The position numbers were made by a program, and so were the translations under genes. The notes beneath the pieces were generated by a model that was not told where the DNA came from, did not search any database, and saw nothing but the letters and a program-made list of their open reading frames with translations. From Sphingomonas sp. Root710 (lineage in GTDB: Bacteria; Pseudomonadota; Alphaproteobacteria; Sphingomonadales; Sphingomonadaceae), in the NCBI RefSeq assembly GCF_001429065.1, contig NZ_LMIB01000012.1:380506-444505 (forward strand): a stretch of DNA of 64,000 nucleotides, in the 5' to 3' direction. Positions 6,058 through 19,570 of this stretch are shown here, piece by piece. Each line of letters opens with the position of its first letter. Within the stretch, counting starts at the first letter, position 1.

Positions 6058-7206
6058 TCACAATGTCTTCGAATAGATCCTGTAGATCTTGTTGACCTTG
6101 CCCTCGACGGTCTCGGCGATCGAGCGCATTCCCTGGTTGTTCTCTAGGATCCAGCCGATCTCGCCGCGGGTCGCGCCATAGTTGGCGACCGAATCGCGGC
6201 GGATATATTCGATCATCATGAAGGCGAGTTGGCTCGCGAGGCGGGTGGCCTGCAGCTTCTTGACCACGCCCATCAGGGGCACACGCATCGTCTTCACCCG
6301 CGGCTTGCGCAGCCGCCACAGCAGCTTGGCCCAGCCAAAGGGAAAGAGCCGCCCGTCGAGATCGGCCATCAGTTCGTTGAGATCGGGCAAGGTCATCATG
6401 AAGGCGACCGGCTCGCCATCGACCTCGGCGACGCGGATAAGATCCTCGAACACGATCGGCTTCAGCTTCTTGCCTGTATAGGCGATCTCGCTGGCGGTGA
6501 TCGGCACGAAACCCCAGTTGTCCGACCAGGCGTCGTTGAGGATCGAGAGGATCAGCGCGGCTTCCTCGTCGAAGCGGCTCCTGTCCACCTTGCGGATATG
6601 GATGCGCGGGTTGCGCTCACCCGAGGAGACGATCCGCTGGACCAGCGGCGGGAATGGCTTGGCGATATCGAGGTCATAGGTCAGCAGATCCTTGATCCCG
6701 CTATAGCCCAACGGCTCGATCCAGCCCTGATAGGCGGGATTGTCGTGCCCCATCATCACCGTCGGCGGATGATCATGGCCCTGGATCAGCAGGCCGGGCT
6801 CTTCCCAGATCGAGCAGCTGATCGGCGCCATCACGCTGGTCATGCCCTTGGCGCGCAGCCAGTCCTCGGCCTGCGCGATCAGCGCCGTCGCAGTCTCCTG
6901 GTCCACGGCTTCGAGCAGGCCCCAATTGCCGATTCCGGGGCCCCCGCCCTGTTCGGCCGGCATCGCCAGCAACAGCTTGTCGATATGCGCCGAAATCCGT
7001 CCGGCCAGCGCGCCATCGCGTTCGGCCAGGAACAGCTGCTGTTCGGCATGTTCGTAAAAGGGGTTCTTGCCCGGCGTGACCAGCTCGAGCGCCTCCATCC
7101 GGAGCGGCGGCACCCAGTTGGGATCGGCTGCGTTCAGCGTGTAGGCGAGTTCGACGAAACGCTTCCGGTCCGCCTTGCTGCTGACGGGGCGGATCGAGAC
7201 GGCCAT
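6058..7206 (-). CDS. GNAT-superfamily N-acyltransferase, candidate bacterial ceramide synthase
   Basis: 382 residues. The N-terminal half carries a GNAT-like domain (FLAERDGALAGRISA near residues 79-93, then PGIGNWGLLEA), and the middle carries the family-conserved blocks SIWEEPGLL and VMMGHDNP. This long two-part family is often labelled only GNAT or hypothetical. It starts 17 nt after the FA2H-like hydroxylase gene and is probably cotranscribed with it. In Caulobacter the ceramide-forming N-acyltransferase bCerS is a GNAT-type protein; the equivalence here is my inference from size, fold and neighbourhood, not from alignment. A generic acetyltransferase remains possible. Confidence 0.75.
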   Translation of the reverse strand: MAVSIRPVSSKADRKRFVELAYTLNAADPNWVPPLRMEALELVTPGKNPFYEHAEQQLFLAERDGALAGRISAHIDKLLLAMPAEQGGGPGIGNWGLLEAVDQETATALIAQAEDWLRAKGMTSVMAPISCSIWEEPGLLIQGHDHPPTVMMGHDNPAYQGWIEPLGYSGIKDLLTYDLDIAKPFPPLVQRIVSSGERNPRIHIRKVDRSRFDEEAALILSILNDAWSDNWGFVPITASEIAYTGKKLKPIVFEDLIRVAEVDGEPVAFMMTLPDLNELMADLDGRLFPFGWAKLLWRLRKPRVKTMRVPLMGVVKKLQATRLASQLAFMMIEYIRRDSVANYGATRGEIGWILENNQGMRSIAETVEGKVNKIYRIYSKTL

Positions 7207-7223: not shown

Positions 7224-7988
7224 TCAGTGCGGGATGCGCTGGCTGGGATGGCCGGTGGCAACCCCGCCCGAGAGGCGCGCGACGTGCGGATAGCGCTCGG
7301 CGACCTCGGGCGTGTAGCCGAGGTTGAACACCGTCTCGCTCTTCTTGTCCTTCTCGATACGCTCGTAATAGGTGCCGAACAGCTTATCCCAGAAATAGTT
7401 GGTGATGCCGAAATTGCCGCGCTCGTCGTGGAAATGATGCGCCATGTGACGCGCCTTCATCTCGATCAGCATCTTGTTCTTCGGCTTGTAGGCCAGATGC
7501 TGGATGCAGTGGCAGAACTCATAGAAGCAGGTCGTCAGCAGGCCGGTGGCGAAGGCCGCCAGCGCGCCGCCGGGGCCGCCGATCCAATAGCCGATCGGTG
7601 CGGTCGCCAGCGCGATCGTCGGCAACGTGGTGTGCAGCGCGCCGAACAGGATTTCCAGACGGTTCGGATCCTGATGATGATCATAATGGATGCGCTTCCA
7701 GGTCGCGGCCAGGAGGGGCACCTTGAACATCCAGCGGCTGTGCAGCACCCAGCGGTGCAGACAGTACCAGACCAGCGGATAGACGAGCAGCGCGACGCCG
7801 ATCGACGCGAGCGTCGGCACCAGCGGCGCGGGATAGCGGAAAAACAGGCCGATCGCGACGATCGCGCTGGTCAGATAGCCGATGATCGCGGGATATTGGA
7901 AATAGGCGATCACCAGCTCGCGCAGCGTCATGCGGTCGAGATGGTGTTCCTTGGCCCAGAAGGCCGGCTTGATGGCGGTGAGCTTCAC
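7224..7988 (-). CDS. Fatty-acid hydroxylase (sterol desaturase superfamily), FA2H-like
   Basis: 254 residues with four or more hydrophobic segments and the di-iron histidine boxes in order: H78/H83 (HRWVLH), H101/H104/H105 (HYDHH), H160/H164 (HCIQH), H181/H184/H185/H187 (RHMAHHFHDE). The C-terminal block MKARHMAHHF...GFGI/NFGITNYFWD is laid out like eukaryotic ceramide fatty-acyl 2-hydroxylases. Sphingomonads are known for 2-hydroxymyristate in their sphingolipids, so 2-hydroxylation of the acyl chain is a plausible job (inference). It leads the operon with the GNAT-type acyltransferase. Confidence 0.85.
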   Translation of the reverse strand: MKLTAIKPAFWAKEHHLDRMTLRELVIAYFQYPAIIGYLTSAIVAIGLFFRYPAPLVPTLASIGVALLVYPLVWYCLHRWVLHSRWMFKVPLLAATWKRIHYDHHQDPNRLEILFGALHTTLPTIALATAPIGYWIGGPGGALAAFATGLLTTCFYEFCHCIQHLAYKPKNKMLIEMKARHMAHHFHDERGNFGITNYFWDKLFGTYYERIEKDKKSETVFNLGYTPEVAERYPHVARLSGGVATGHPSQRIPH

Positions 7989-8088: not shown

Positions 8089-9183
8089 CTATTCTTCGGT
8101 CCGGATCAGGACGGCTTCGCCGATGAGCAGGAACAGCAGGAAGGGCGCCCAGGCGGCAAGCATCGGCGGATAGGCGCCGAGATTGCCCATCGCGAGCGCG
8201 AAATTGTCGGCGACGAAATAGGCGAAGCCCAGCGCCATGCCGATCACCGCGCGAATGAACAGATGCCCCGACCGGGCCAGGCCGAAGGCGGCTACCCCCG
8301 CCAGCAACGGCATCAGCATCGCCGAAAGCGGCCCCGACAATTTATGCCATAATCCAGCCCGGAGCGGCCCGGTGGGGCGTCCCGCGGCATCGAGATCTTC
8401 GATCGCGCCGCGCAGCTGGAGGATCGAGCGCGAAGCCGGATCGACGCTGGACAGGGTGAAACGGTCGGCGGTGACGCCACGCGCGAAATCGAACCTGGGC
8501 AGCTGGGTGGTCACCCCCCGGGCGACGTCGAATTGCGCCGCATCGGTGATCCGCCAGCCGCCATCGGCCTGAACCGCCCGCGTGCCCTTGACGATCGAAA
8601 TCAGCCGCCCGCCATCGCGATCGTACAGGGTGACGCGGTCGAGCTCGGCGCGCAGCCCGCGCCCGCGCGCCGTGGCGGCGTGGATCAGATCGTCGCCGTC
8701 GCGGACCCACACATTGTTGGCGATGCCGCGGTCGCGCGGGATCGGGCCATAGTCGGCGTTGGACCAGGCCGTCAGCGTCGCGGTCGACCGGGCGACGACG
8801 CGTTCGTTGAACAACAGCGATACCATGGCGATACCCATGCTGGCGACGATCAGCGGCGCAAGGATCTGGTGCGCCGAGATTCCCGCCGCCTTCATCGAGA
8901 TGATCTCGCTGTTCTGGTTGAGGGTGACGAAGGTGATGAGCGTTGCGAGCAACGCCGCGAAGGGCAGGAAGCGGGCGATGATCTGCGGCGTCCGCAGCGT
9001 CACATAGAGCCACAGCTGCGCGTCGCCATTGCCAGGATAGGCCAGGATATCGCCCGATTCGCCCAGCAGGTCGAGCGCCATCAGCACGATCACCAGCGCC
9101 GCCAGCACCGCCGCGAAGCGGACCAGGAACATCCGCGCCATGTAGAAGGTGATCGTCCGCGAGGCGAAGAAGGAGATGTTCAT
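8089..9183 (-). CDS. lptG: LptG-like export permease (YjgP/YjgQ family)
   Basis: 364 residues from ATG 9183; the longer frame upstream runs inside lptF and is not used. There are three N-terminal transmembrane helices, a central periplasmic beta-jellyroll region and three C-terminal helices, the usual LptF/G layout. LptG pairs with LptF and the LptB ATPase to extract lipopolysaccharide from the inner membrane. Its start overlaps the lptF stop (TGATG), showing translational coupling. Some sphingomonads carry glycosphingolipid instead of LPS, so the cargo may differ here. Confidence 0.9.
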   Translation of the reverse strand: MNISFFASRTITFYMARMFLVRFAAVLAALVIVLMALDLLGESGDILAYPGNGDAQLWLYVTLRTPQIIARFLPFAALLATLITFVTLNQNSEIISMKAAGISAHQILAPLIVASMGIAMVSLLFNERVVARSTATLTAWSNADYGPIPRDRGIANNVWVRDGDDLIHAATARGRGLRAELDRVTLYDRDGGRLISIVKGTRAVQADGGWRITDAAQFDVARGVTTQLPRFDFARGVTADRFTLSSVDPASRSILQLRGAIEDLDAAGRPTGPLRAGLWHKLSGPLSAMLMPLLAGVAAFGLARSGHLFIRAVIGMALGFAYFVADNFALAMGNLGAYPPMLAAWAPFLLFLLIGEAVLIRTEE

Positions 9184-10385
9184 CACGCGGCCTCCTTCCG
9201 GCTGAACTTGATCCAGCGGATCACCGCCTTCACCGCCTTGTCGGCGGCGCGCTCGAGCGCCCCGATCGGCTGACCGCCGGGAACATGGGCAATCGTACGG
9301 TACATCCACCACACCAGCGCCGCAAAGCAGAGGAAGGGTATCCACAGCGCCAGGATAGGTTCGATCCTGCCCAATGCGGCGACCGAAGCGGCATATTCGT
9401 TGATCTTGTGCTGGGTGACGATCATGATGATCGACAGGAACACGCCGAGCGCCGAAGAGGACCGCTTGGGGGGTATGGCGAGCGCGAGCGCGAGCATCGG
9501 CAGCAGGAACATCGTCGCCACCTCGACCAGCCGGAAATGGAACTCGGAGCGCAATTCCGAGCGCAGCTTCTCCGGCGTGTTCGGCTTGTGGGCGGTGACA
9601 ACCAGTTCAGGCATCGTCATTTCGAGGTCGCGGCCGCCGCGCTGGCGGAAGGCCTCCATCTTGGGCAGGTCGATCGGCAGGTCATGGCCGACGAACTGGA
9701 GCACACGCGGCTCCTTGAAGCTGGGTGCGTCGTGGACGAGGACGCCATTACGCAGGCGCAGGATGATCGTGTCAGGGTCGTCCGTCGCCAGGAACTGACC
9801 ATGTTCGGCGGTGACCGCGAGGCTCTTGCCTTCGTTAGATTCGGTCATCACGAAGATGCCCGAAAGCTCGCGCCCGCCGTCGCGGCTCGTTTCGACCCGG
9901 ATTGTCATCCGTTTGCCCAGCTTGGTGAACTCGCCGACCTTGATCGATGCGCCAAGCGCGCCCGATCGCAGCTCGAAGCGCAGCCCTTCATAGGCATAGC
10001 GCGAATAAGGCTGGATGAAGCCGACGATGGCGAGATTGAGCAAGGCGAGCGCAATCGCATAATAATAGGGCACGCGGAGCAGCCGCCCGTAGCTCATTCC
10101 CACTGCCCGCAGCACGTCGAGTTCCGACGACAGCGCGAGCTTGCGGAAGGCGAGCAGGCAGCCGAGCATCAGCCCGATCGGGATGCCGAGCGACATATAT
10201 TCCGGAATAAGATTGGCGAGCATGCGCCATACGACGCTGACCGGCCCGCCCTCCGACACGACGAAGTCGAACAGCCGCAGCATCTTGTCGAGGGTGAGGA
10301 GCATCGCCGCGATCACCAGCGTGCCGATAAGGGGCGTGGCGATCAGGCGGGCGACATATCGGTCGGTTAGCGTGTCAAATCTCAA
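9183..10385 (-). CDS. lptF: LptF-like export permease (YjgP/YjgQ family)
   Basis: 400 residues, with the same six-helix and periplasmic-jellyroll layout as LptG. Family-typical ALLAFRKL-like and SELDVLRAVGMSYGRLL segments after the second helix mark the coupling region that contacts the ATPase. The best start is TTG 10385, with GGGGCG 8 nt upstream; no ATG fits. First gene of a two-gene operon with lptG, divergent from the DUF2141/lipid-kinase operon across about 117 bp that must hold both promoters. Confidence 0.88.
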   Translation of the reverse strand: MRFDTLTDRYVARLIATPLIGTLVIAAMLLTLDKMLRLFDFVVSEGGPVSVVWRMLANLIPEYMSLGIPIGLMLGCLLAFRKLALSSELDVLRAVGMSYGRLLRVPYYYAIALALLNLAIVGFIQPYSRYAYEGLRFELRSGALGASIKVGEFTKLGKRMTIRVETSRDGGRELSGIFVMTESNEGKSLAVTAEHGQFLATDDPDTIILRLRNGVLVHDAPSFKEPRVLQFVGHDLPIDLPKMEAFRQRGGRDLEMTMPELVVTAHKPNTPEKLRSELRSEFHFRLVEVATMFLLPMLALALAIPPKRSSSALGVFLSIIMIVTQHKINEYAASVAALGRIEPILALWIPFLCFAALVWWMYRTIAHVPGGQPIGALERAADKAVKAVIRWIKFSRKEAA

Positions 10386-10502
10386 CTTTTCGACGCCCCG
10401 TGACCATGTTCTGGCCGCAATCGCAGCCCAATTTCCGACTCATGGGGCAGTGTACCGGCCATGGGTTCGCGCATGGCTATAGCTTCCAGGAGTAATGAGG
10501 TC

Positions 10503-11021
10503 ATGTCGAAACTTGTGGCAGGGATGGCGGGAATGTTGATCGCGGCGGCAATGCCCGCCAGCGCGCACGCCGCCGTGCTCGGCCCCGACGCGAGCGCCTG
10601 CAAGGGCGACGGCCCGGCGATGCTCGTTCATATCGAGGGTCTGAAGAAGCGCGGCGGAACGCTGCGCGTCCAATCCTATGGCGGCAATCCCAATCGCTAT
10701 TTCGAAAAGGGCGCGTGGCTGCGTCGCGTCGACGTTCCCGTCCCCGCGACGGGCCCGGTCGAGATCTGCGTCGCGGTGCCCGCCGAAGGCACTTATGCGG
10801 TGTCGGTGCGGCACGACGTCGATTCGTCGGGCAAGACCGGCATGAACGATGGCGGCGGGATGTCGGGCAATCCGAAGATGTCGCTGTTCGACGTGATGTT
10901 CAAACGCAAGCCCAGCCCGGACCGGGTGAAGGTTGCGGTGCACGGCGTGGTTCGCGTTCCGGTCACGATGAACTATGTCCAGGGCGGCTCGTTCGGCCCT
11001 ATCGCGATGGCGGCGAGGTAG
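10503..11021 (+). CDS. DUF2141 family secreted protein
   Basis: 172 residues from ATG 10503 (AGGAG and GAGG just upstream; two in-frame ATGs further up lack sites and spoil the signal peptide). A signal peptide ends near ASAHAA. The rest is a small beta-sandwich of the DUF2141 type with GTYAVSVRHDVDSSGKTGMN, resembling the family's D-x-N-x-N loop. Function is unknown. First gene of a probable operon: the lipid kinase ATG comes 3 nt after this stop. Confidence 0.82.
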   Translation: MSKLVAGMAGMLIAAAMPASAHAAVLGPDASACKGDGPAMLVHIEGLKKRGGTLRVQSYGGNPNRYFEKGAWLRRVDVPVPATGPVEICVAVPAEGTYAVSVRHDVDSSGKTGMNDGGGMSGNPKMSLFDVMFKRKPSPDRVKVAVHGVVRVPVTMNYVQGGSFGPIAMAAR

Positions 11022-11024
11022 TCG

Positions 11025-11996
11025 ATGGCCAGCGTCGCGCTCCTCTCCAATCCGCGCTCGACCGGCAATCTGTCGATGTTGCCGCGGATGCGGAGCTATT
11101 GCGCGGCGCATAGCGACGTCTTCCATTATGAGGTGGAGTCGATCGAGCAGATCGGCGAGGCGCTGCGCACCATCGCCCGGGTCAATCCCAAGGTGCTGGT
11201 GGTGAATGGCGGCGACGGCACCGTCCAGGCGGCGCTGACCGAACTCTATCTGGGCGGCCATTTCGACGGATCGCCACCGCCGGTCGCGGTGCTGCCAAAT
11301 GGCAAGACCAATCTGATCGCGCTCGATCTGGGCGCGGTGGGCGATCCAATCGCGGCGCTTGCCAAGGTGATCGAGATCGCGCGCAACGGCGTCGAGGAGC
11401 ATGTCGTCGACCGCGAACTCATCGCGCTGTCGGACGGCACCGATGGCGCGCGTCCGGTGCTGGGGATGTTCCTTGGCGGCGCGGGGCTCGCCGACACGAT
11501 CCTCTATTGCCGCAACAAGATCTATCCGCTCGGCCTGCCCAACGGGATCAGCCATGTGCTCACCGCCATCGCGGTGCTCGCGACACTGATCCTTGGCATC
11601 CGCACCGCCTTCCTGCCCCCCGCCGCGACTCCACTGAAGGTGTCGATGATGCGCCAGGGCCAGTTGCACGGCCGCTTCTCGCTGCTGATCGTCACCACGC
11701 TGCATAAGCTGCTTCTGGGCAGCAGCACCGGCGGCGCGGCCTCGGCGGGCCCGTTGCAGATGATGGTCGTCGAACAGCGTCCGCTGCCGCTGCTGCGCGC
11801 GCTCTTCGCGGGCATCTTCGGACGGGTCGGCCGCAACCAGATGGACGGCGTTCATTTCGAGCGCGGCGACGAGATCCGCATCGAAGGCGAGCGTTCGAGC
11901 GTGGTGCTCGACGGCGAAATCTTCCAGGCGGACGCCGGCCGACCGATCATCCTCAAGACCACCCCGCCGGTCCCCTTCCTGCGCCTCGCCGCTTAA
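11025..11996 (+). CDS. Diacylglycerol-kinase-family lipid kinase, candidate ceramide/long-chain-base kinase
   Basis: 323 residues. The ATP-site motif NGGDGT is at 61-66 and the family's late DGE is near residue 307, so the catalytic domain looks complete. The second nucleotide motif, normally G-T-x-N-D, reads PNGKTNLIA (91-99), lacking the usual Asp, which suggests a divergent subgroup. DAGK-family enzymes phosphorylate diacylglycerol, sphingoid bases or ceramide; Caulobacter CpgB, a ceramide kinase, belongs to this broad family. Ceramide as substrate is inferred from the neighbourhood. It is tightly spaced between DUF2141 and the nucleotidyltransferase gene. Confidence 0.85.
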   Translation: MASVALLSNPRSTGNLSMLPRMRSYCAAHSDVFHYEVESIEQIGEALRTIARVNPKVLVVNGGDGTVQAALTELYLGGHFDGSPPPVAVLPNGKTNLIALDLGAVGDPIAALAKVIEIARNGVEEHVVDRELIALSDGTDGARPVLGMFLGGAGLADTILYCRNKIYPLGLPNGISHVLTAIAVLATLILGIRTAFLPPAATPLKVSMMRQGQLHGRFSLLIVTTLHKLLLGSSTGGAASAGPLQMMVVEQRPLPLLRALFAGIFGRVGRNQMDGVHFERGDEIRIEGERSSVVLDGEIFQADAGRPIILKTTPPVPFLRLAA

Positions 11997-12004
11997 GGCC
12001 GTTC

Positions 12005-12928
12005 ATGGCGCTCGAAACGCTGGTCGCGGCCGAACTGGCCGAATCCGTCGATCCACGCGTCACCGCCATGGCCACAGCCTTGGCCGCGCGCTACGGGCGG
12101 GCTTCGCGGTCGGTACTGTTCTACGGCTCCTGCCTGCGCGAGGCCAATCTCGACGGGCTGATGCTCGATTTCTATCTGATCGTCTCGGACTATGCCGAAG
12201 CCTTCGGCAAGGGCTGGCTGGCTTTCGCCAACCGGCTCATCCCGCCGAACGTTTTCCCGTTCGAGCATGACGGGCTGATCGCGAAATATGCGGTGCTGAG
12301 CGAAGCCGACTTCACCCGCCTCGCCTCCTCCTCGACGCGCAACGTGTCGGTCTGGGCCCGCTTCGCCCAGCCATCACGCCTCGTCTGGGCGGCCGACGAC
12401 GGCGCGCGGGCGCATGGCGTCGCCGCCATCGCCGGGGCCGCTCCCGCACTGCTCGCCGCCGCGCGGCCGATGCTCGCCGATACGGTGACGCTCGACGAAC
12501 TGTGGGGCCAAGCCTTCAACCTCACCTATGCTGCCGAACTGCGCGCCGAGCGCAAGGGCCGGGCGACCTCGGTCGTCGCCGCCGATCCCGTCCGCTACCG
12601 CTGCTTCACTGCGCCGGCCCTCGCCGCCGCGGGCCTCCCCGCGACGATCACGGGGGATCGCATCGCTTTCGAGGAGGCGTTGACCGCGGCTGAGCGGCGC
12701 GCCGGAGCAGCCCTGTGGGTGCGCCGCCGCCGCGAGGGCAAGGCGCTGACCATCGTCCGGCTCGCCAAGGCGAGCACCACCTATGCCGGGGGGATCGATT
12801 ATCTCGCCTGGAAGATCAACCGCCACGCCGGAGCCGCGATCGAGATTCGCCCCTGGCAGCGCCGCTGGCCGATCCTCGGGGCGATCAGCCTGCTGCCCCG
12901 CCTGATCCTGCGCGGCGCGGTGCGCTGA
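12005..12928 (+). CDS. Tam41/Mmp37-like lipid nucleotidyltransferase (candidate CDP-lipid synthase)
   Basis: 307 residues. Residues 39-60 give FYGS...LMLDFYLIV and 93-99 give AKYAVLS, matching the order and spacing of the Tam41 signature (YGSG, M-x-D-F-x-F-x-V, K-Y-G). Tam41 makes CDP-diacylglycerol from phosphatidic acid and CTP in mitochondria. Here the gene follows the lipid kinase by 8 nt, so the pair could phosphorylate a lipid and then activate it with CTP. Fold assignment is by motif only; the substrate (phosphatidate or ceramide-1-phosphate) is open. Confidence 0.7.
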   Translation: MALETLVAAELAESVDPRVTAMATALAARYGRASRSVLFYGSCLREANLDGLMLDFYLIVSDYAEAFGKGWLAFANRLIPPNVFPFEHDGLIAKYAVLSEADFTRLASSSTRNVSVWARFAQPSRLVWAADDGARAHGVAAIAGAAPALLAAARPMLADTVTLDELWGQAFNLTYAAELRAERKGRATSVVAADPVRYRCFTAPALAAAGLPATITGDRIAFEEALTAAERRAGAALWVRRRREGKALTIVRLAKASTTYAGGIDYLAWKINRHAGAAIEIRPWQRRWPILGAISLLPRLILRGAVR

Positions 12929-16459: not shown

Positions 16460-17662
16460 TCAGGCGATCACACCCGTAGCCCGGCCCGCGCGCTCAAACA
16501 TGCCGAGGATCTCGTCGACCTGCTCGTCGCTATGTTCGGCACAGAGCGAGCAGCGCAGCAAGAACATACCCGCCGGCGTGGCGGGCGGGCGCGCCGTGTT
16601 AACGTAAAGGCCAGCCTCGAGCAGCCCCTGCCACAGCGCCACCGCCTGAGCCATGTCGGTGAGGATCACAGCGATGATCGCCGACTGGGCGGTCTCGGTG
16701 CCGAGCTTGTAGCCCATGTCGCGCAGGCCCTGGTGCAGGCGGCGCGAATTCTTCCAGAGATGCGCACGCTTGTCGCCGGCATGCATCAGCTTGCGGATCG
16801 AGGCCGCGGCGGTGGCGACGACCGACGGCGGCAGCGACGCGGTAAACACATAGGGACGGCAGACGAGGCGCAGCACCTCGAACTTCGGATGGTTCGACAC
16901 GCAGAAGCCGCCGACCGTGCCGACCGACTTGGAGAAGGTGCCAACGACGAAATCGATGTCGTCGGAGACGCCCGCTTCCTCGAACACGCCACGGCCATGT
17001 TCGCCGAAGAAGCCCATGCCATGCGCTTCATCGCACAGGATCATCGCGCCATGCTTCTTCGAAACGGCAACCATCTCCTTGAGCGGTGCGATATCGCCCA
17101 TCATCGAATAGACGCCTTCGAGGACGACGAGCTTGCCTGCCTCGGCCGGCAGGCGACCCAGTCGCTTGTCGAGATCCTCGACCGAATTGTGCCGGAAGCG
17201 GACCACCTCGGCATTGCCCAGCGAGCAGCCGTCGTAGATCGAGGCATGGCTGTCGGCATCTAGTATGATGTAATCGCCCTTGCCCGCGATCGTGGAGATC
17301 ATGCCGAGATTGGCCTGATATCCCGTCGAAAAGACGATCGCATGCTCGGTGCCGTAGAACTCCTTCAGCGCTTCTTCGCACTCCTTGTGGCCCTGATAGG
17401 TGCCGTTGAGAACGCGGCTGCCGGTGGTGCCGGAACCGAAGGCGTCGAGCGCGGCCTTGCCAGCGGCGATCACGTCCGCGTCGAAGGTCATGCCCATATA
17501 GTTGTAGGTGCCGAGCAATATCGTGCGCTTGCCGTTGATCAGCGCTTCGGTGGGCGACAGCACTTTGTCCATCACGATGCCGTAGGGATCGCGCACGCCT
17601 GTCGCGAGCAGCGCCTCGCGCTCGTTGATCAGCGGATCGAATTTCGAAAACAGATCCTTCAC
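16460..17662 (-). CDS. spt: Serine palmitoyltransferase
   Basis: 400 residues from GTG 17662 (the longer frame overlaps the ACP gene and is rejected). It is an alpha-oxoamine synthase: DSHASIYDG with the cofactor-stacking H139, DEAHGMGFFG (D211, H214), and the PLP lysine K245 in GTFSKSVGT. It condenses serine with a long-chain acyl thioester to give 3-oxo-sphinganine, the first step of sphingolipid synthesis, in the cytoplasm. It starts 5 nt after the ACP stop, so the two are coupled; the same arrangement is known in Sphingomonas wittichii. Confidence 0.95.
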   Translation of the reverse strand: MKDLFSKFDPLINEREALLATGVRDPYGIVMDKVLSPTEALINGKRTILLGTYNYMGMTFDADVIAAGKAALDAFGSGTTGSRVLNGTYQGHKECEEALKEFYGTEHAIVFSTGYQANLGMISTIAGKGDYIILDADSHASIYDGCSLGNAEVVRFRHNSVEDLDKRLGRLPAEAGKLVVLEGVYSMMGDIAPLKEMVAVSKKHGAMILCDEAHGMGFFGEHGRGVFEEAGVSDDIDFVVGTFSKSVGTVGGFCVSNHPKFEVLRLVCRPYVFTASLPPSVVATAAASIRKLMHAGDKRAHLWKNSRRLHQGLRDMGYKLGTETAQSAIIAVILTDMAQAVALWQGLLEAGLYVNTARPPATPAGMFLLRCSLCAEHSDEQVDEILGMFERAGRATGVIA

Positions 17663-17667
17663 CGGAT

Positions 17668-17910
17668 TCAGCCCTGCAATTTGGCGACGGCGTCGACCAG
17701 CTGGCCAATCGTCTCGATCTCGGCCTGCATGTTCATCGTGATGATGATGTCGAACTCGTCCTCGACTGCGGCGACGAAATCCATCACGGTCAGGCTGTCC
17801 CATTCGAGGTCGCCCGCGAAGGTCGTCGCGTCGGTCAGGTCGACGCCCTTCTTGTTAAAGGGTTCGATCTGTTCCGCCACGCGGGTGAAGATATCGTCTC
17901 GGTCGCTCAT
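17668..17910 (-). CDS. Dedicated acyl carrier protein for serine palmitoyltransferase
   Basis: 80 residues, acidic, with phosphopantetheine attachment at S39 in EWDSLTVMD. It is more divergent than the fatty-acid-synthase ACP (WDSL instead of LDSL). Its position directly before spt suggests it delivers the acyl group to that enzyme, as proposed for S. wittichii and for Caulobacter AcpR. ATG 17910 has AAGGGA 6 nt upstream. Confidence 0.9.
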   Translation of the reverse strand: MSDRDDIFTRVAEQIEPFNKKGVDLTDATTFAGDLEWDSLTVMDFVAAVEDEFDIIITMNMQAEIETIGQLVDAVAKLQG

Positions 17911-18125: not shown

Positions 18126-18668
18126 GTGTCGACCGAACCAGCCAATCCGAACGGACCGCGCGTTTATTCGCCAGACTTCGTCCACCTGCTCCGCACCACC
18201 CAGTCGATCCAGTATCAGCTCAGCCAGATGGCCGATCAGAAGGCTAACCTGCTGATGGGGACGACCTTCGTGATCTTCACGATTACGCTGGGGCAGATCA
18301 AGGGCGGCGGCCATCCGCCGCTGGCGCTGCTGATCCTGGGCGCCGCCGCCTTTCTGTCGGCGCTGCTTGCGGTGATGGCGGTGCTGCCGTCGACCAAGGT
18401 GCCGCCCAAGGCCGACGGCCCGGCCAATCTCCTGTTCTTCGGATCGTTCAGCCAGTTGAGCGAGGACGAGTTCGTCGCGATGATGCTGAAGACTGTCGAG
18501 ACCCATCAGGGTGTGTTCGAAGCCTTTGCGCACGACATCTACCAGAACGGCCGGGTGCTCGCCCGCAAGAAATACCGGCTGCTCGGCTATGCCTATAAGG
18601 TGCTGGTGCTGGGTCTGATCTGCAGCTTCGTCGCCTTCATCCTGCACTTTGCGGCGGGAATCGGCTAG
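18126..18668 (+). CDS. Two-helix membrane protein with Pycsar-effector-like (DUF5706) domain
   Basis: 180 residues from GTG 18126, with AGGGGGG upstream. An amphipathic helix with QYQLSQMADQKANLL leads into a transmembrane helix, then a second helix (about 60-82), a cytoplasmic stretch and a C-terminal hydrophobic segment. The Q-x(4)-M-A-D-x-K-A pattern before the first helix is what PycTM-type Pycsar effectors and DUF5706 proteins show. No nucleotide cyclase is encoded beside it. Its stop codon shares a CTAG with the convergent reductase gene. A defence role is possible but unproven. Confidence 0.7.
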   Translation: MSTEPANPNGPRVYSPDFVHLLRTTQSIQYQLSQMADQKANLLMGTTFVIFTITLGQIKGGGHPPLALLILGAAAFLSALLAVMAVLPSTKVPPKADGPANLLFFGSFSQLSEDEFVAMMLKTVETHQGVFEAFAHDIYQNGRVLARKKYRLLGYAYKVLVLGLICSFVAFILHFAAGIG

Positions 18669-19570
18669 AGCCACCCCTCCGATCGATACCAGCCCGCCGT
18701 CGCCTTCAGCCCTTCGGCGGCACTTACCTTGGGTTGCCAGATCGATGCGGGAGGCCGCTTCTGCACGACCCAATCGGGATGGCAGAAATAGCGAACCCGG
18801 TCGGGGGTGAGCTTGGCGCGATCACCGTGCCGCATCCGCTCCGCCATCGCCGCCAGCCGCAGCACGAAGCCCGGCACCGGCAGCGTCAGCAGGCGCGGAC
18901 GGCCGACGCCCTGCCCGATCAGCTTGCCGAACTCACGATGGCTATAGCCCTGGGACGCTCCGTCATCGGGCTCGTACACTTGCCCGACAGCGTCCTTGGC
19001 GCCAATGAGGTCGAGCAGCAGCCGGGCCAGATCGCCGGCTTCGATCAGCGATATCCGGCCCTTGGGCGGCAGCGGGAGAATGCCCTTGCGCCGGGCGACG
19101 CGGAACAGTTCCAGCATTTCGCGATCGCCCGCGCCGTAAATCGCCGGGGGCCGGACGATCGTCCAGTCGAGCGGTGACTGCACCACCATCGCCTCCGAAG
19201 CCGCCTTGGACCAGCCATAGTCGGACAGGTCAGGCTCTCGCGCCGACAGCGACGAGACGTGAATGAAGCGTTTCGCGCCGACCGCCTCGCTCGCGGTCAG
19301 CAGCGATGCCGTACCGGTGACGTTCGCTTCGACGAAACCGGCGAGCGCGGGCGCGTTGATCGCACCGGCGATGTGGATCACCGCATCGGCGCCCTCGGCC
19401 AGGTCGGCGAGCACGCGATGATCCTCGAGCGTGCCCTTGATCCATTCGACATTGGGCCGGGGCAACTGCGCGCTGCGGGTGAGCGCCTTGATATCATGGC
19501 CCCGCGCCGCCGCCTCGCGCAGGACATGGCCGCCCAGGAAGCCGGTGCCCCCGGTGATCGCGAGGATCAC
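18665..19570 (-). CDS. NAD(P)-dependent epimerase/reductase, candidate 3-oxo-sphingolipid reductase (CerR-like)
   Basis: 301 residues from GTG 19570. The Rossmann motif GGTGFLGG is at 7-14, with HVSSLSA and an active-site-type YGWSK (extended/atypical SDR). In Caulobacter the reductase CerR, encoded beside spt and acp, is annotated in the same way; here the gene is about 0.7 kb from acp with one gene between. Reduction of 3-oxo-ceramide or 3-oxo-sphinganine is therefore a reasonable guess. It overlaps the proB stop by 4 nt (GTGA), so it is translated from the obgE-proB transcript. Confidence 0.8.
   Translation of the reverse strand: MILAITGGTGFLGGHVLREAAARGHDIKALTRSAQLPRPNVEWIKGTLEDHRVLADLAEGADAVIHIAGAINAPALAGFVEANVTGTASLLTASEAVGAKRFIHVSSLSAREPDLSDYGWSKAASEAMVVQSPLDWTIVRPPAIYGAGDREMLELFRVARRKGILPLPPKGRISLIEAGDLARLLLDLIGAKDAVGQVYEPDDGASQGYSHREFGKLIGQGVGRPRLLTLPVPGFVLRLAAMAERMRHGDRAKLTPDRVRYFCHPDWVVQKRPPASIWQPKVSAAEGLKATAGWYRSEGWL

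What the first reader, a model, noticed from the sequence alone, without database searches (positions are those of the whole stretch)
11025..12928. Lipid kinase plus Tam41-like nucleotidyltransferase as a possible CDP-lipid module
A DAGK-family kinase and a protein with the Tam41 motif order are 8 nt apart. Together they could phosphorylate a lipid and convert it to a CDP-lipid. Next to sphingolipid genes this raises the possibility of CDP-ceramide as an intermediate, a chemistry not standard in textbooks.
Basis: inference. Interest (0 to 1): 0.75.

Follow-up and report, generated by a model that had tools for sequence, protein, structure and literature searches.

The report
Ceramide kinase with Tam41-like nucleotidyltransferase
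Two neighbouring bacterial genes look like the known pair that starts building a phosphate-bearing sphingolipid, and the predicted shape of the second protein suggests that it activates ceramide with CTP, a step that has been guessed at in print but not shown.

Summary
A DAGK/SphK-fold lipid kinase (11025-11996) and a nucleotidyltransferase (12005-12928) lie 8 nt apart. The predicted nucleotidyltransferase structure (pLDDT 93.5) matches Tam41 far better than the next solved family (VIA Z 19.0 and 16.1 against 8.7) and shows Tam41's single-acid pattern, although sequence profiles barely see it (PF09139: 1 of 45 family members).

The pair is of a known kind. By gene content and order it corresponds to cpgB and cpgC of Caulobacter ceramide-phosphoglycerate synthesis. 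CpgB is a proven ceramide kinase; CpgC acts "via an unidentified mechanism", and a 2024 paper already suggested an NDP-activated ceramide.

Added here: fold evidence for a Tam41-type step; a tight link with serine palmitoyltransferase-like genes (37 of 38 genomes; 9 of 9 in a partly overlapping sample); CdsA in 23 of 23 genomes, so CDP-DAG needs no second enzyme; and a constraint on the next step, since seven CpgC genomes show only two CDP-alcohol phosphotransferases.

CDP-ceramide is the most likely product (about 0.6) but unproven. The Caulobacter sequences could not be fetched for direct comparison.

The parts
11025..11996 (+). lipid kinase, CpgB-like (ceramide kinase by inference)
   Evidence: PF00781 E 2.1e-12; GDGT 63-66 and DGE 296-298 invariant, G62 nearly so, in 21 aligned sequences, own included; no CxxxCxxC; AlphaFold pLDDT 85.0, SphK1 Z 24.1
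12005..12928 (+). Tam41-fold nucleotidyltransferase, CpgC-like (CDP-ceramide synthase by inference)
   Evidence: AlphaFold pLDDT 93.5; 7ecd Tam41-CTP-Mg Z 19.0, 6ig4 Z 16.1; D55 in 45 of 45 aligned sequences, residue 57 never acidic
10461..11021 (+). DUF2141 protein, 3 nt upstream of the kinase, probably same operon
   Evidence: PF09912 E 1e-14; a homologue near CpgC in 38 of 80 named loci
6058..7206 (-). CerS-like GNAT N-acyltransferase
   Evidence: weak GNAT match below cut-off; homologues in 38 of 47 named loci with 8 kb on both sides; the name CerS rests on position and on the literature
7224..7988 (-). fatty acid hydroxylase family protein
   Evidence: PF04116 E 8.9e-23
8089..9186 (-). 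LptG-like permease (LptG2 position)
   Evidence: PF03739 E 7.3e-70
9183..10385 (-). LptF-like permease (LptF2 position)
   Evidence: PF03739 E 6.6e-61
16460..17803 (-). serine palmitoyltransferase (true start probably within the ORF)
   Evidence: NF047603 797.4 bits, cut-off 670
18665..19570 (-). CerR-like NAD-dependent epimerase/dehydratase
   Evidence: PF01370 E 4.8e-20; homologues near SPT in the related loci

Best explanation
The two genes are the sphingomonad counterparts of cpgB and cpgC. The kinase phosphorylates ceramide with ATP to ceramide-1-phosphate (shown for Caulobacter CpgB; inferred here). The second protein, a Tam41-fold enzyme, then transfers CMP from CTP to the phosphate of ceramide-1-phosphate and releases pyrophosphate, giving CDP-ceramide (inferred). 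A transferase then swaps CMP for glycerate or phosphoglycerate to give ceramide phosphoglycerate (inferred; enzyme unknown). CpgD- and CpgA-like proteins encoded elsewhere in the genome would add the second phosphoglycerate, and the neighbouring LptF2/LptG2 would help carry the lipid to the outer membrane (inferred from the published model).
For: Fold: Foldseek ranks 1-5 are Tam41 chains, E 1.8e-9 to 1.2e-7; VIA Z 19.0 over 233 residues against the CTP-Mg complex 7ecd and 16.1 against 6ig4, next family 8.7. Catalytic pattern: one invariant acid, D55 in 45 of 45, with Y/H/C at residue 57, and no D or E conserved at 90% or more between residues 57 and 177; [quoted passage not shown] Substrate: in 289 alphaproteobacterial genomes CpgC-like is in 38 and SPT-like (E <= 1e-120) in 42, both in 37 (Fisher 4.3e-40, relatedness not removed); 25 of those 37 have the two within 5 kb. 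In 200 genomes of the phylum 9 have CpgC-like and all 9 have SPT-like (E <= 1e-110), of 13 with SPT-like; five of the nine are also in the class sample. CdsA PF01148 is in 23 of 23 genomes tested, 20 of them with CpgC, own included. Published genetics: cpgB and cpgC are the two genes needed for CPG (PMC11324152 sections 8 and 13; PMC12275187). Chemical logic: CPG has one phosphate, and if it comes from ceramide-1-phosphate it must be activated before an alcohol can be joined.
Against: No activity, substrate or CDP-ceramide has been seen. Sequence profiles hardly link the protein to Tam41: PF09139 matches 1 of 45 family members, not the window protein, gives nothing over its cut-off in 200 genomes, and the CpgC profile finds no Tam41 chain in the PDB. 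No dedicated consumer fits everywhere: of 16 CpgC genomes without CpgA, seven show only two PF01066 matches, presumably PgsA and PssA, so either these take CDP-ceramide or the chemistry differs. In Caulobacter CPG still forms without CpgA. CTP use is inferred from Tam41 alone. One CpgC genome (G356) has only weaker SPT-like matches, best 1.9e-70. Only 5 of 289 and 6 of 200 genomes pass the SPT model's curated cut-off, so most SPT calls rest on E-value. Direct alignment with Caulobacter CpgB/CpgC was not possible.
Confidence: 0.62

Rival explanations
1. The second protein converts ceramide-1-phosphate to ceramide phosphoglycerate itself, or in a complex, by a reaction that does not release CDP-ceramide.
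For: Zik et al., as described in PMC11324152, drew CpgC as the step from ceramide-1-phosphate to CPG (Zik not read). Seven CpgC genomes show no PF01066 transferase beyond two.
Against: Joining glycerate to an unactivated phosphate is called energetically not very favourable (PMC11324152 Conclusions); the Tam41 fold and single-acid site point to nucleotidyl transfer.
Confidence: 0.18
2. The protein activates ceramide-1-phosphate with another nucleotide (ATP, GTP or UTP), giving a different NDP-ceramide.
For: PMC11324152 wrote only NTP/NDP; the base specificity was not read from the model.
Against: The closest solved structure is a CTP complex (7ecd, Z 19.0), and CpgD of the same pathway uses CTP.
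Confidence: 0.08
3. The pair works on diacylglycerol and phosphatidate, as a second CDP-DAG route.
For: Both folds have glycerolipid-active relatives (DgkB, Tam41).
Against: CdsA is present in 23 of 23 genomes tested; the gene tracks SPT-like genes in 37 of 38 and 9 of 9 genomes; Caulobacter CpgB phosphorylates ceramide (PMC10331486 abstract).
Confidence: 0.07

Closest known systems
CpgB/CpgC (CC_1160/CC_1161, CCNA_01218/CCNA_01219) of Caulobacter crescentus
   Same: Adjacent lipid kinase and nucleotidyltransferase near SPT, CerR, CerS and second LptF/LptG; PMC11324152 lists orthologues in Sphingomonas wittichii (section 9).
   Different: Here CpgA-, CpgD- and CC_1153-like genes lie on another contig (locus L003), and no direct alignment with the Caulobacter proteins could be made.
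Tam41 (PF09139), mitochondrial and Firmicutes CDP-DAG synthase
   Same: Fold over 233 residues (Z 19.0) and single-acid pattern.
   Different: About 17% identity; no match over the Pfam cut-off; tied to sphingolipid genes.
CdsA (PF01148)
   Same: Makes a CDP-lipid from a lipid phosphate and CTP.
   Different: Different family; present separately in the same genome.
Human-type ceramide kinase
   Same: GGDG motif and lipid kinase superfamily.
   Different: Lacks CxxxCxxC, as reported for CpgB.

Membership tests
CpgB bacterial ceramide kinase | DAGK/SphK-type kinase fold with GGDG motif | tested here: met
   PF00781; GGDGT at 62-66; SphK1 Z 24.1
CpgB bacterial ceramide kinase | absence of the eukaryotic CxxxCxxC motif | tested here: met
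   none found; feature stated in PMC10331486 section 7
CpgB bacterial ceramide kinase | ATP-dependent phosphorylation of ceramide | not testable with these tools
   needs an assay
CpgC | next to cpgB in a sphingolipid cluster | tested here: met
CpgC | sequence orthology to CCNA_01219 | not tested
CpgC | required for ceramide phosphoglycerate | not testable with these tools
   needs a deletion
Tam41 (PF09139) | Tam41 fold | tested here: met
   Z 19.0 and 16.1 against 8.7 for the next family
Tam41 (PF09139) | one of the three usual NT-fold acids kept | tested here: met
   D55 45 of 45, residue 57 Y 43, H 1, C 1; that 57 is the second-acid position is recalled NT-fold knowledge
Tam41 (PF09139) | sequence match over the Pfam cut-off | tested here: not met
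   no PF09139 match in the window protein at E 1; 1 of 45 family members, E 5.5e-5; 0 of 200 genomes over the cut-off
Tam41 (PF09139) | C-terminal membrane-binding region | tested here: inconclusive
   hydrophobic, amphipathic C-terminal helix 289-302; feature from a PMC7018664 passage
Tam41 (PF09139) | CTP:phosphatidate cytidylyltransferase activity | not testable with these tools
   needs an assay
CdsA (PF01148) | match to PF01148 | tested here: not met
   no PF01148 match in the window protein at E 1

The most novel reading that the evidence does not exclude
This is a CDP-ceramide synthase, an enzyme that puts a sphingolipid on a CDP carrier (no paper of the held library names such a compound). 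CDP-ceramide is a branch point: it is used by the housekeeping PgsA or PssA in bacteria that hold no other CDP-alcohol phosphotransferase, and by dedicated CpgA-type paralogues where they occur, so bacterial phosphosphingolipids would be built by the same CDP logic as glycerophospholipids.
Probability: 0.4. Interest if true: 0.75.

Novelty: new member of a known kind. Interest (0 to 1): 0.48.

Why it matters
Ceramide phosphoglycerates can substitute for LPS in the outer membrane (PMC13228409 abstract) and were published as the presumptive polymyxin target in Caulobacter. The step from ceramide-1-phosphate to ceramide phosphoglycerate is the open one: a May 2026 preprint still calls it unidentified. 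A Tam41 fold with its single-acid site turns it into one simple assay, CTP plus ceramide-1-phosphate. If CDP-ceramide is the product, the enzyme that consumes it must, in seven genomes, be one of two PF01066 enzymes (presumably PgsA and PssA) or a protein of another family.

Tried and rejected
Sequence-only links to Tam41 failed: phmmer with the protein found nothing in the PDB at E 10, and the family profile found only a nucleotidyltransferase domain at E 0.037 and a chance peroxidase. PF09139 over 200 genomes gave weak matches in four, none over the cut-off; the best (G449, E 2.2e-4) is itself a CpgC-like ORF with a CpgB-like ORF beside it.

A dedicated CDP-ceramide-using transferase was sought. 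CpgA-type enzymes (E <= 1e-20) occur in 22 of 289 genomes, all within the 38 with CpgC, but 16 CpgC genomes lack one. Extra CpgA-type paralogues occur in Dongia and relatives and in two Nitrospirales MAGs. So CpgA is downstream of CpgC or accessory to it, not its universal partner. Clustering of neighbouring ORFs in 100 loci showed acyl-ACP-synthetase-like, metallophosphoesterase, desaturase-like and flippase-like families, the widest in 46 loci; none is in every locus. Except for the phosphoesterase these family names are by eye from the sequence, not from a search.

CdsA replacement was rejected because PF01148 is in 23 of 23 genomes. Chance adjacency was rejected.

Cautions on the SPT control. 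At E 1e-120 Escherichia coli rings as well as Caulobacter vibrioides among 14 controls, neither over the model's cut-off (the same at 1e-110), and only 5 of 289 genomes pass that cut-off. In six genomes looked at singly the lesser matches lay between 1e-38 and 1e-60, apart from G356, whose best is 1.9e-70, and one short match at 1.8e-4, so the E-value threshold separates there, but the E. coli ring is unexplained. The ORF beside the pair in G356 (31% identity to the window's SPT; 1.9e-58) scores like those lesser matches and may not be an SPT. The profile searches scored only the best few candidates of each genome (up to 7, 6), so counts are lower bounds.

Searches for CDP-ceramide and six variants found no paper in the held library; the same idea stands in PMC11324152 in other words, and most subscription papers are not held.

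Full report
Observation. Both ORFs exist where stated, on the + strand, with 8 nt between them. A DUF2141 gene ends 3 nt before the kinase starts, so the three probably form one operon. Around them lie a CerS-like GNAT protein, a fatty acid hydroxylase, an LptF/LptG-like pair, serine palmitoyltransferase (NF047603, 797.4 bits against a cut-off of 670) and a CerR-like reductase.

The kinase. It carries DAGK_cat; GDGT and DGE are invariant in 21 aligned sequences, own included. Its AlphaFold model (pLDDT 85.0) matches sphingosine kinase 1 (Z 24.1), a Bacillus diacylglycerol kinase (23.3) and YegS (22.9), well above NAD kinases (13.9 and below). Fold does not decide the substrate. It lacks the CxxxCxxC of eukaryotic ceramide kinases, as was reported for CpgB (PMC10331486 section 7).

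The nucleotidyltransferase. Sequence profiles hardly place it. A model built on an alignment of 45 sequences, own included, is confident (pLDDT 93.5, pTM 0.90). Foldseek's five best chains are all Tam41 (E 1.8e-9 to 1.2e-7). VIA gives Z 19.0 (3.3 A over 233 residues) to Firmicutes Tam41 with CTP-Mg and 16.1 and 15.7 to mitochondrial Tam41, then 8.7 to aminoglycoside nucleotidyltransferase. A review passage says that Tam41 keeps only one of the three acids usual in this fold (PMC11646218, passages seen; original papers not read). The family here shows the same: D55 in 45 of 45, residue 57 Y, H or C in 45 of 45, and no acid conserved at 90% between residues 57 and 177, where K94 is invariant.

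Distribution. In the order sample 50 of 79 genomes have it. In 289 genomes of the class 38 have it, 42 have an SPT-like match at E 1e-120 and 37 have both. The 38th, G356, has only weaker matches of this kind (best 1.9e-70; one at 1.9e-58 beside the pair), and whether one of them is an SPT is open. SPT-like without it occurs in five genomes. In 200 genomes of the phylum it is in 9, all among 13 with an SPT-like match at E 1e-110; five of these nine are also in the class sample. Only 5 of 289 and 6 of 200 genomes pass the SPT model's curated cut-off, Caulobacter among those below it, and E. coli rings too at these thresholds. Relatedness was not removed, so the Fisher value (4.3e-40) overstates independence; the 38 genomes fall in 20 families. 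The kinase is adjacent on the same strand in 55 of 59 fetched loci and in 70 of 80 named loci. Among the 47 named loci with at least 8 kb on both sides, SPT lies near in 42, LptG2 in 43, LptF2 in 41 and CerS in 38. The 80 named loci are the best of 591, picked by likeness to a Dongia sequence.

What is known. In Caulobacter, CpgB (CC_1160) is a ceramide kinase (PMC10331486 abstract). CC_1161 (CpgC) and CC_1160 are needed for ceramide phosphoglycerate, while CC_1159, CC_1158, CC_1153 and CC_1152 serve the second phosphoglycerate (PMC11324152 section 8, first of two parts read). CpgD (CC_1152) makes CDP-glycerate (PMC12275187 abstract and discussion; that CCNA_01210 is CC_1152 follows from the gene sets). 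The Conclusions of PMC11324152 note an InterPro CDP-DAG synthase domain in CC_1161 and suggest an NDP-activated ceramide. A May 2026 preprint still writes 'via an unidentified mechanism' (PMC13228409, abstract and passages). The 2024 paper lists orthologues in Sphingomonas wittichii (section 9).

Rest of the pathway in this genome. On another contig lie a MobA-like nucleotidyltransferase (CC_1153-like), a CpgA-like CDP-alcohol phosphotransferase, a HIT protein and a CpgD-like nucleotidyltransferase. The last has CTP:phosphocholine cytidylyltransferase as its best PDB match (E 4.5e-12), in keeping with the relation reported for CpgD. The names are by family and gene set, not by direct comparison with Caulobacter proteins.

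Mechanism. CPG carries one phosphate. If that phosphate comes from ceramide-1-phosphate, as the ceramide kinase requirement implies, it must be activated before an alcohol can be joined to it; a Tam41-type CMP transfer does exactly this. CdsA is in 23 of 23 genomes tested, 20 of them with CpgC, so phosphatidate activation needs no second enzyme. The weak point is the consumer. CpgA-type enzymes are in 22 of the 38 CpgC genomes and in none of the other 251, so CpgC works without CpgA, as the Caulobacter genetics also says. Of the 16 without it, seven (G023, G098, G208, G209, G216, G288, G296) have just two PF01066 matches, presumably PgsA and PssA. Either a housekeeping enzyme takes CDP-ceramide, or the headgroup is joined by another kind of enzyme, or the chemistry is different.

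Verdict. Observation confirmed; interpretation plausible, better supported than before on structural grounds, already suggested in print, and not proven.

Noticed in passing
L063 (same record as L154), L064, L065, L067, L068, L070, L071, L148 (Dongia and relatives); L073, L080 (Nitrospirales MAGs): Two CpgA-type CDP-alcohol phosphotransferases with intact motif in one sphingolipid cluster; four Dongia-type genomes (G106, G215, G295, G362) have a third copy. They could split the CDP-ceramide and CDP-glycerate steps or lengthen the headgroup.
   Followed up: partly
L003:2090-2524 (+); also L068, L070, L078, L081, L123, L147, L152: A HIT-domain protein follows the CpgA-like gene by 1 nt and recurs beside LptF2 or CpgA elsewhere. 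By gene order it may be CC_1157 (inference), which the 2024 paper calls probably unrelated, as its mutants lack high cofitness with the cluster, but reports absent together with CC_1159 in Zymomonas.
   Followed up: partly
10461-11021; L155-L158: DUF2141 stays next to the CpgB/CpgC pair even in a diverged sphingomonad group where the rest of the cluster is not nearby.
   Followed up: no
L101, L117, L137 (Sphingobium), L125 (Sphingomonadaceae MAG): CpgC lies near SPT but no adjacent kinase was found; ORFs were inspected in L137 only.
   Followed up: partly
L073, L080, L105, L120, L133, L141: CpgB/CpgC-like pairs, some with most of the sphingolipid cluster, in MAGs labelled Nitrospirales/Nitrospirota, Marinimicrobia and Deltaproteobacteria; transfer or mislabelled bins.
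   Followed up: no
30 of 100 related loci, e.g. L068:6793-7761: A calcineurin-like phosphoesterase recurs in the clusters (Pfam PF00149) and may be the CC_1158 type.
   Followed up: no
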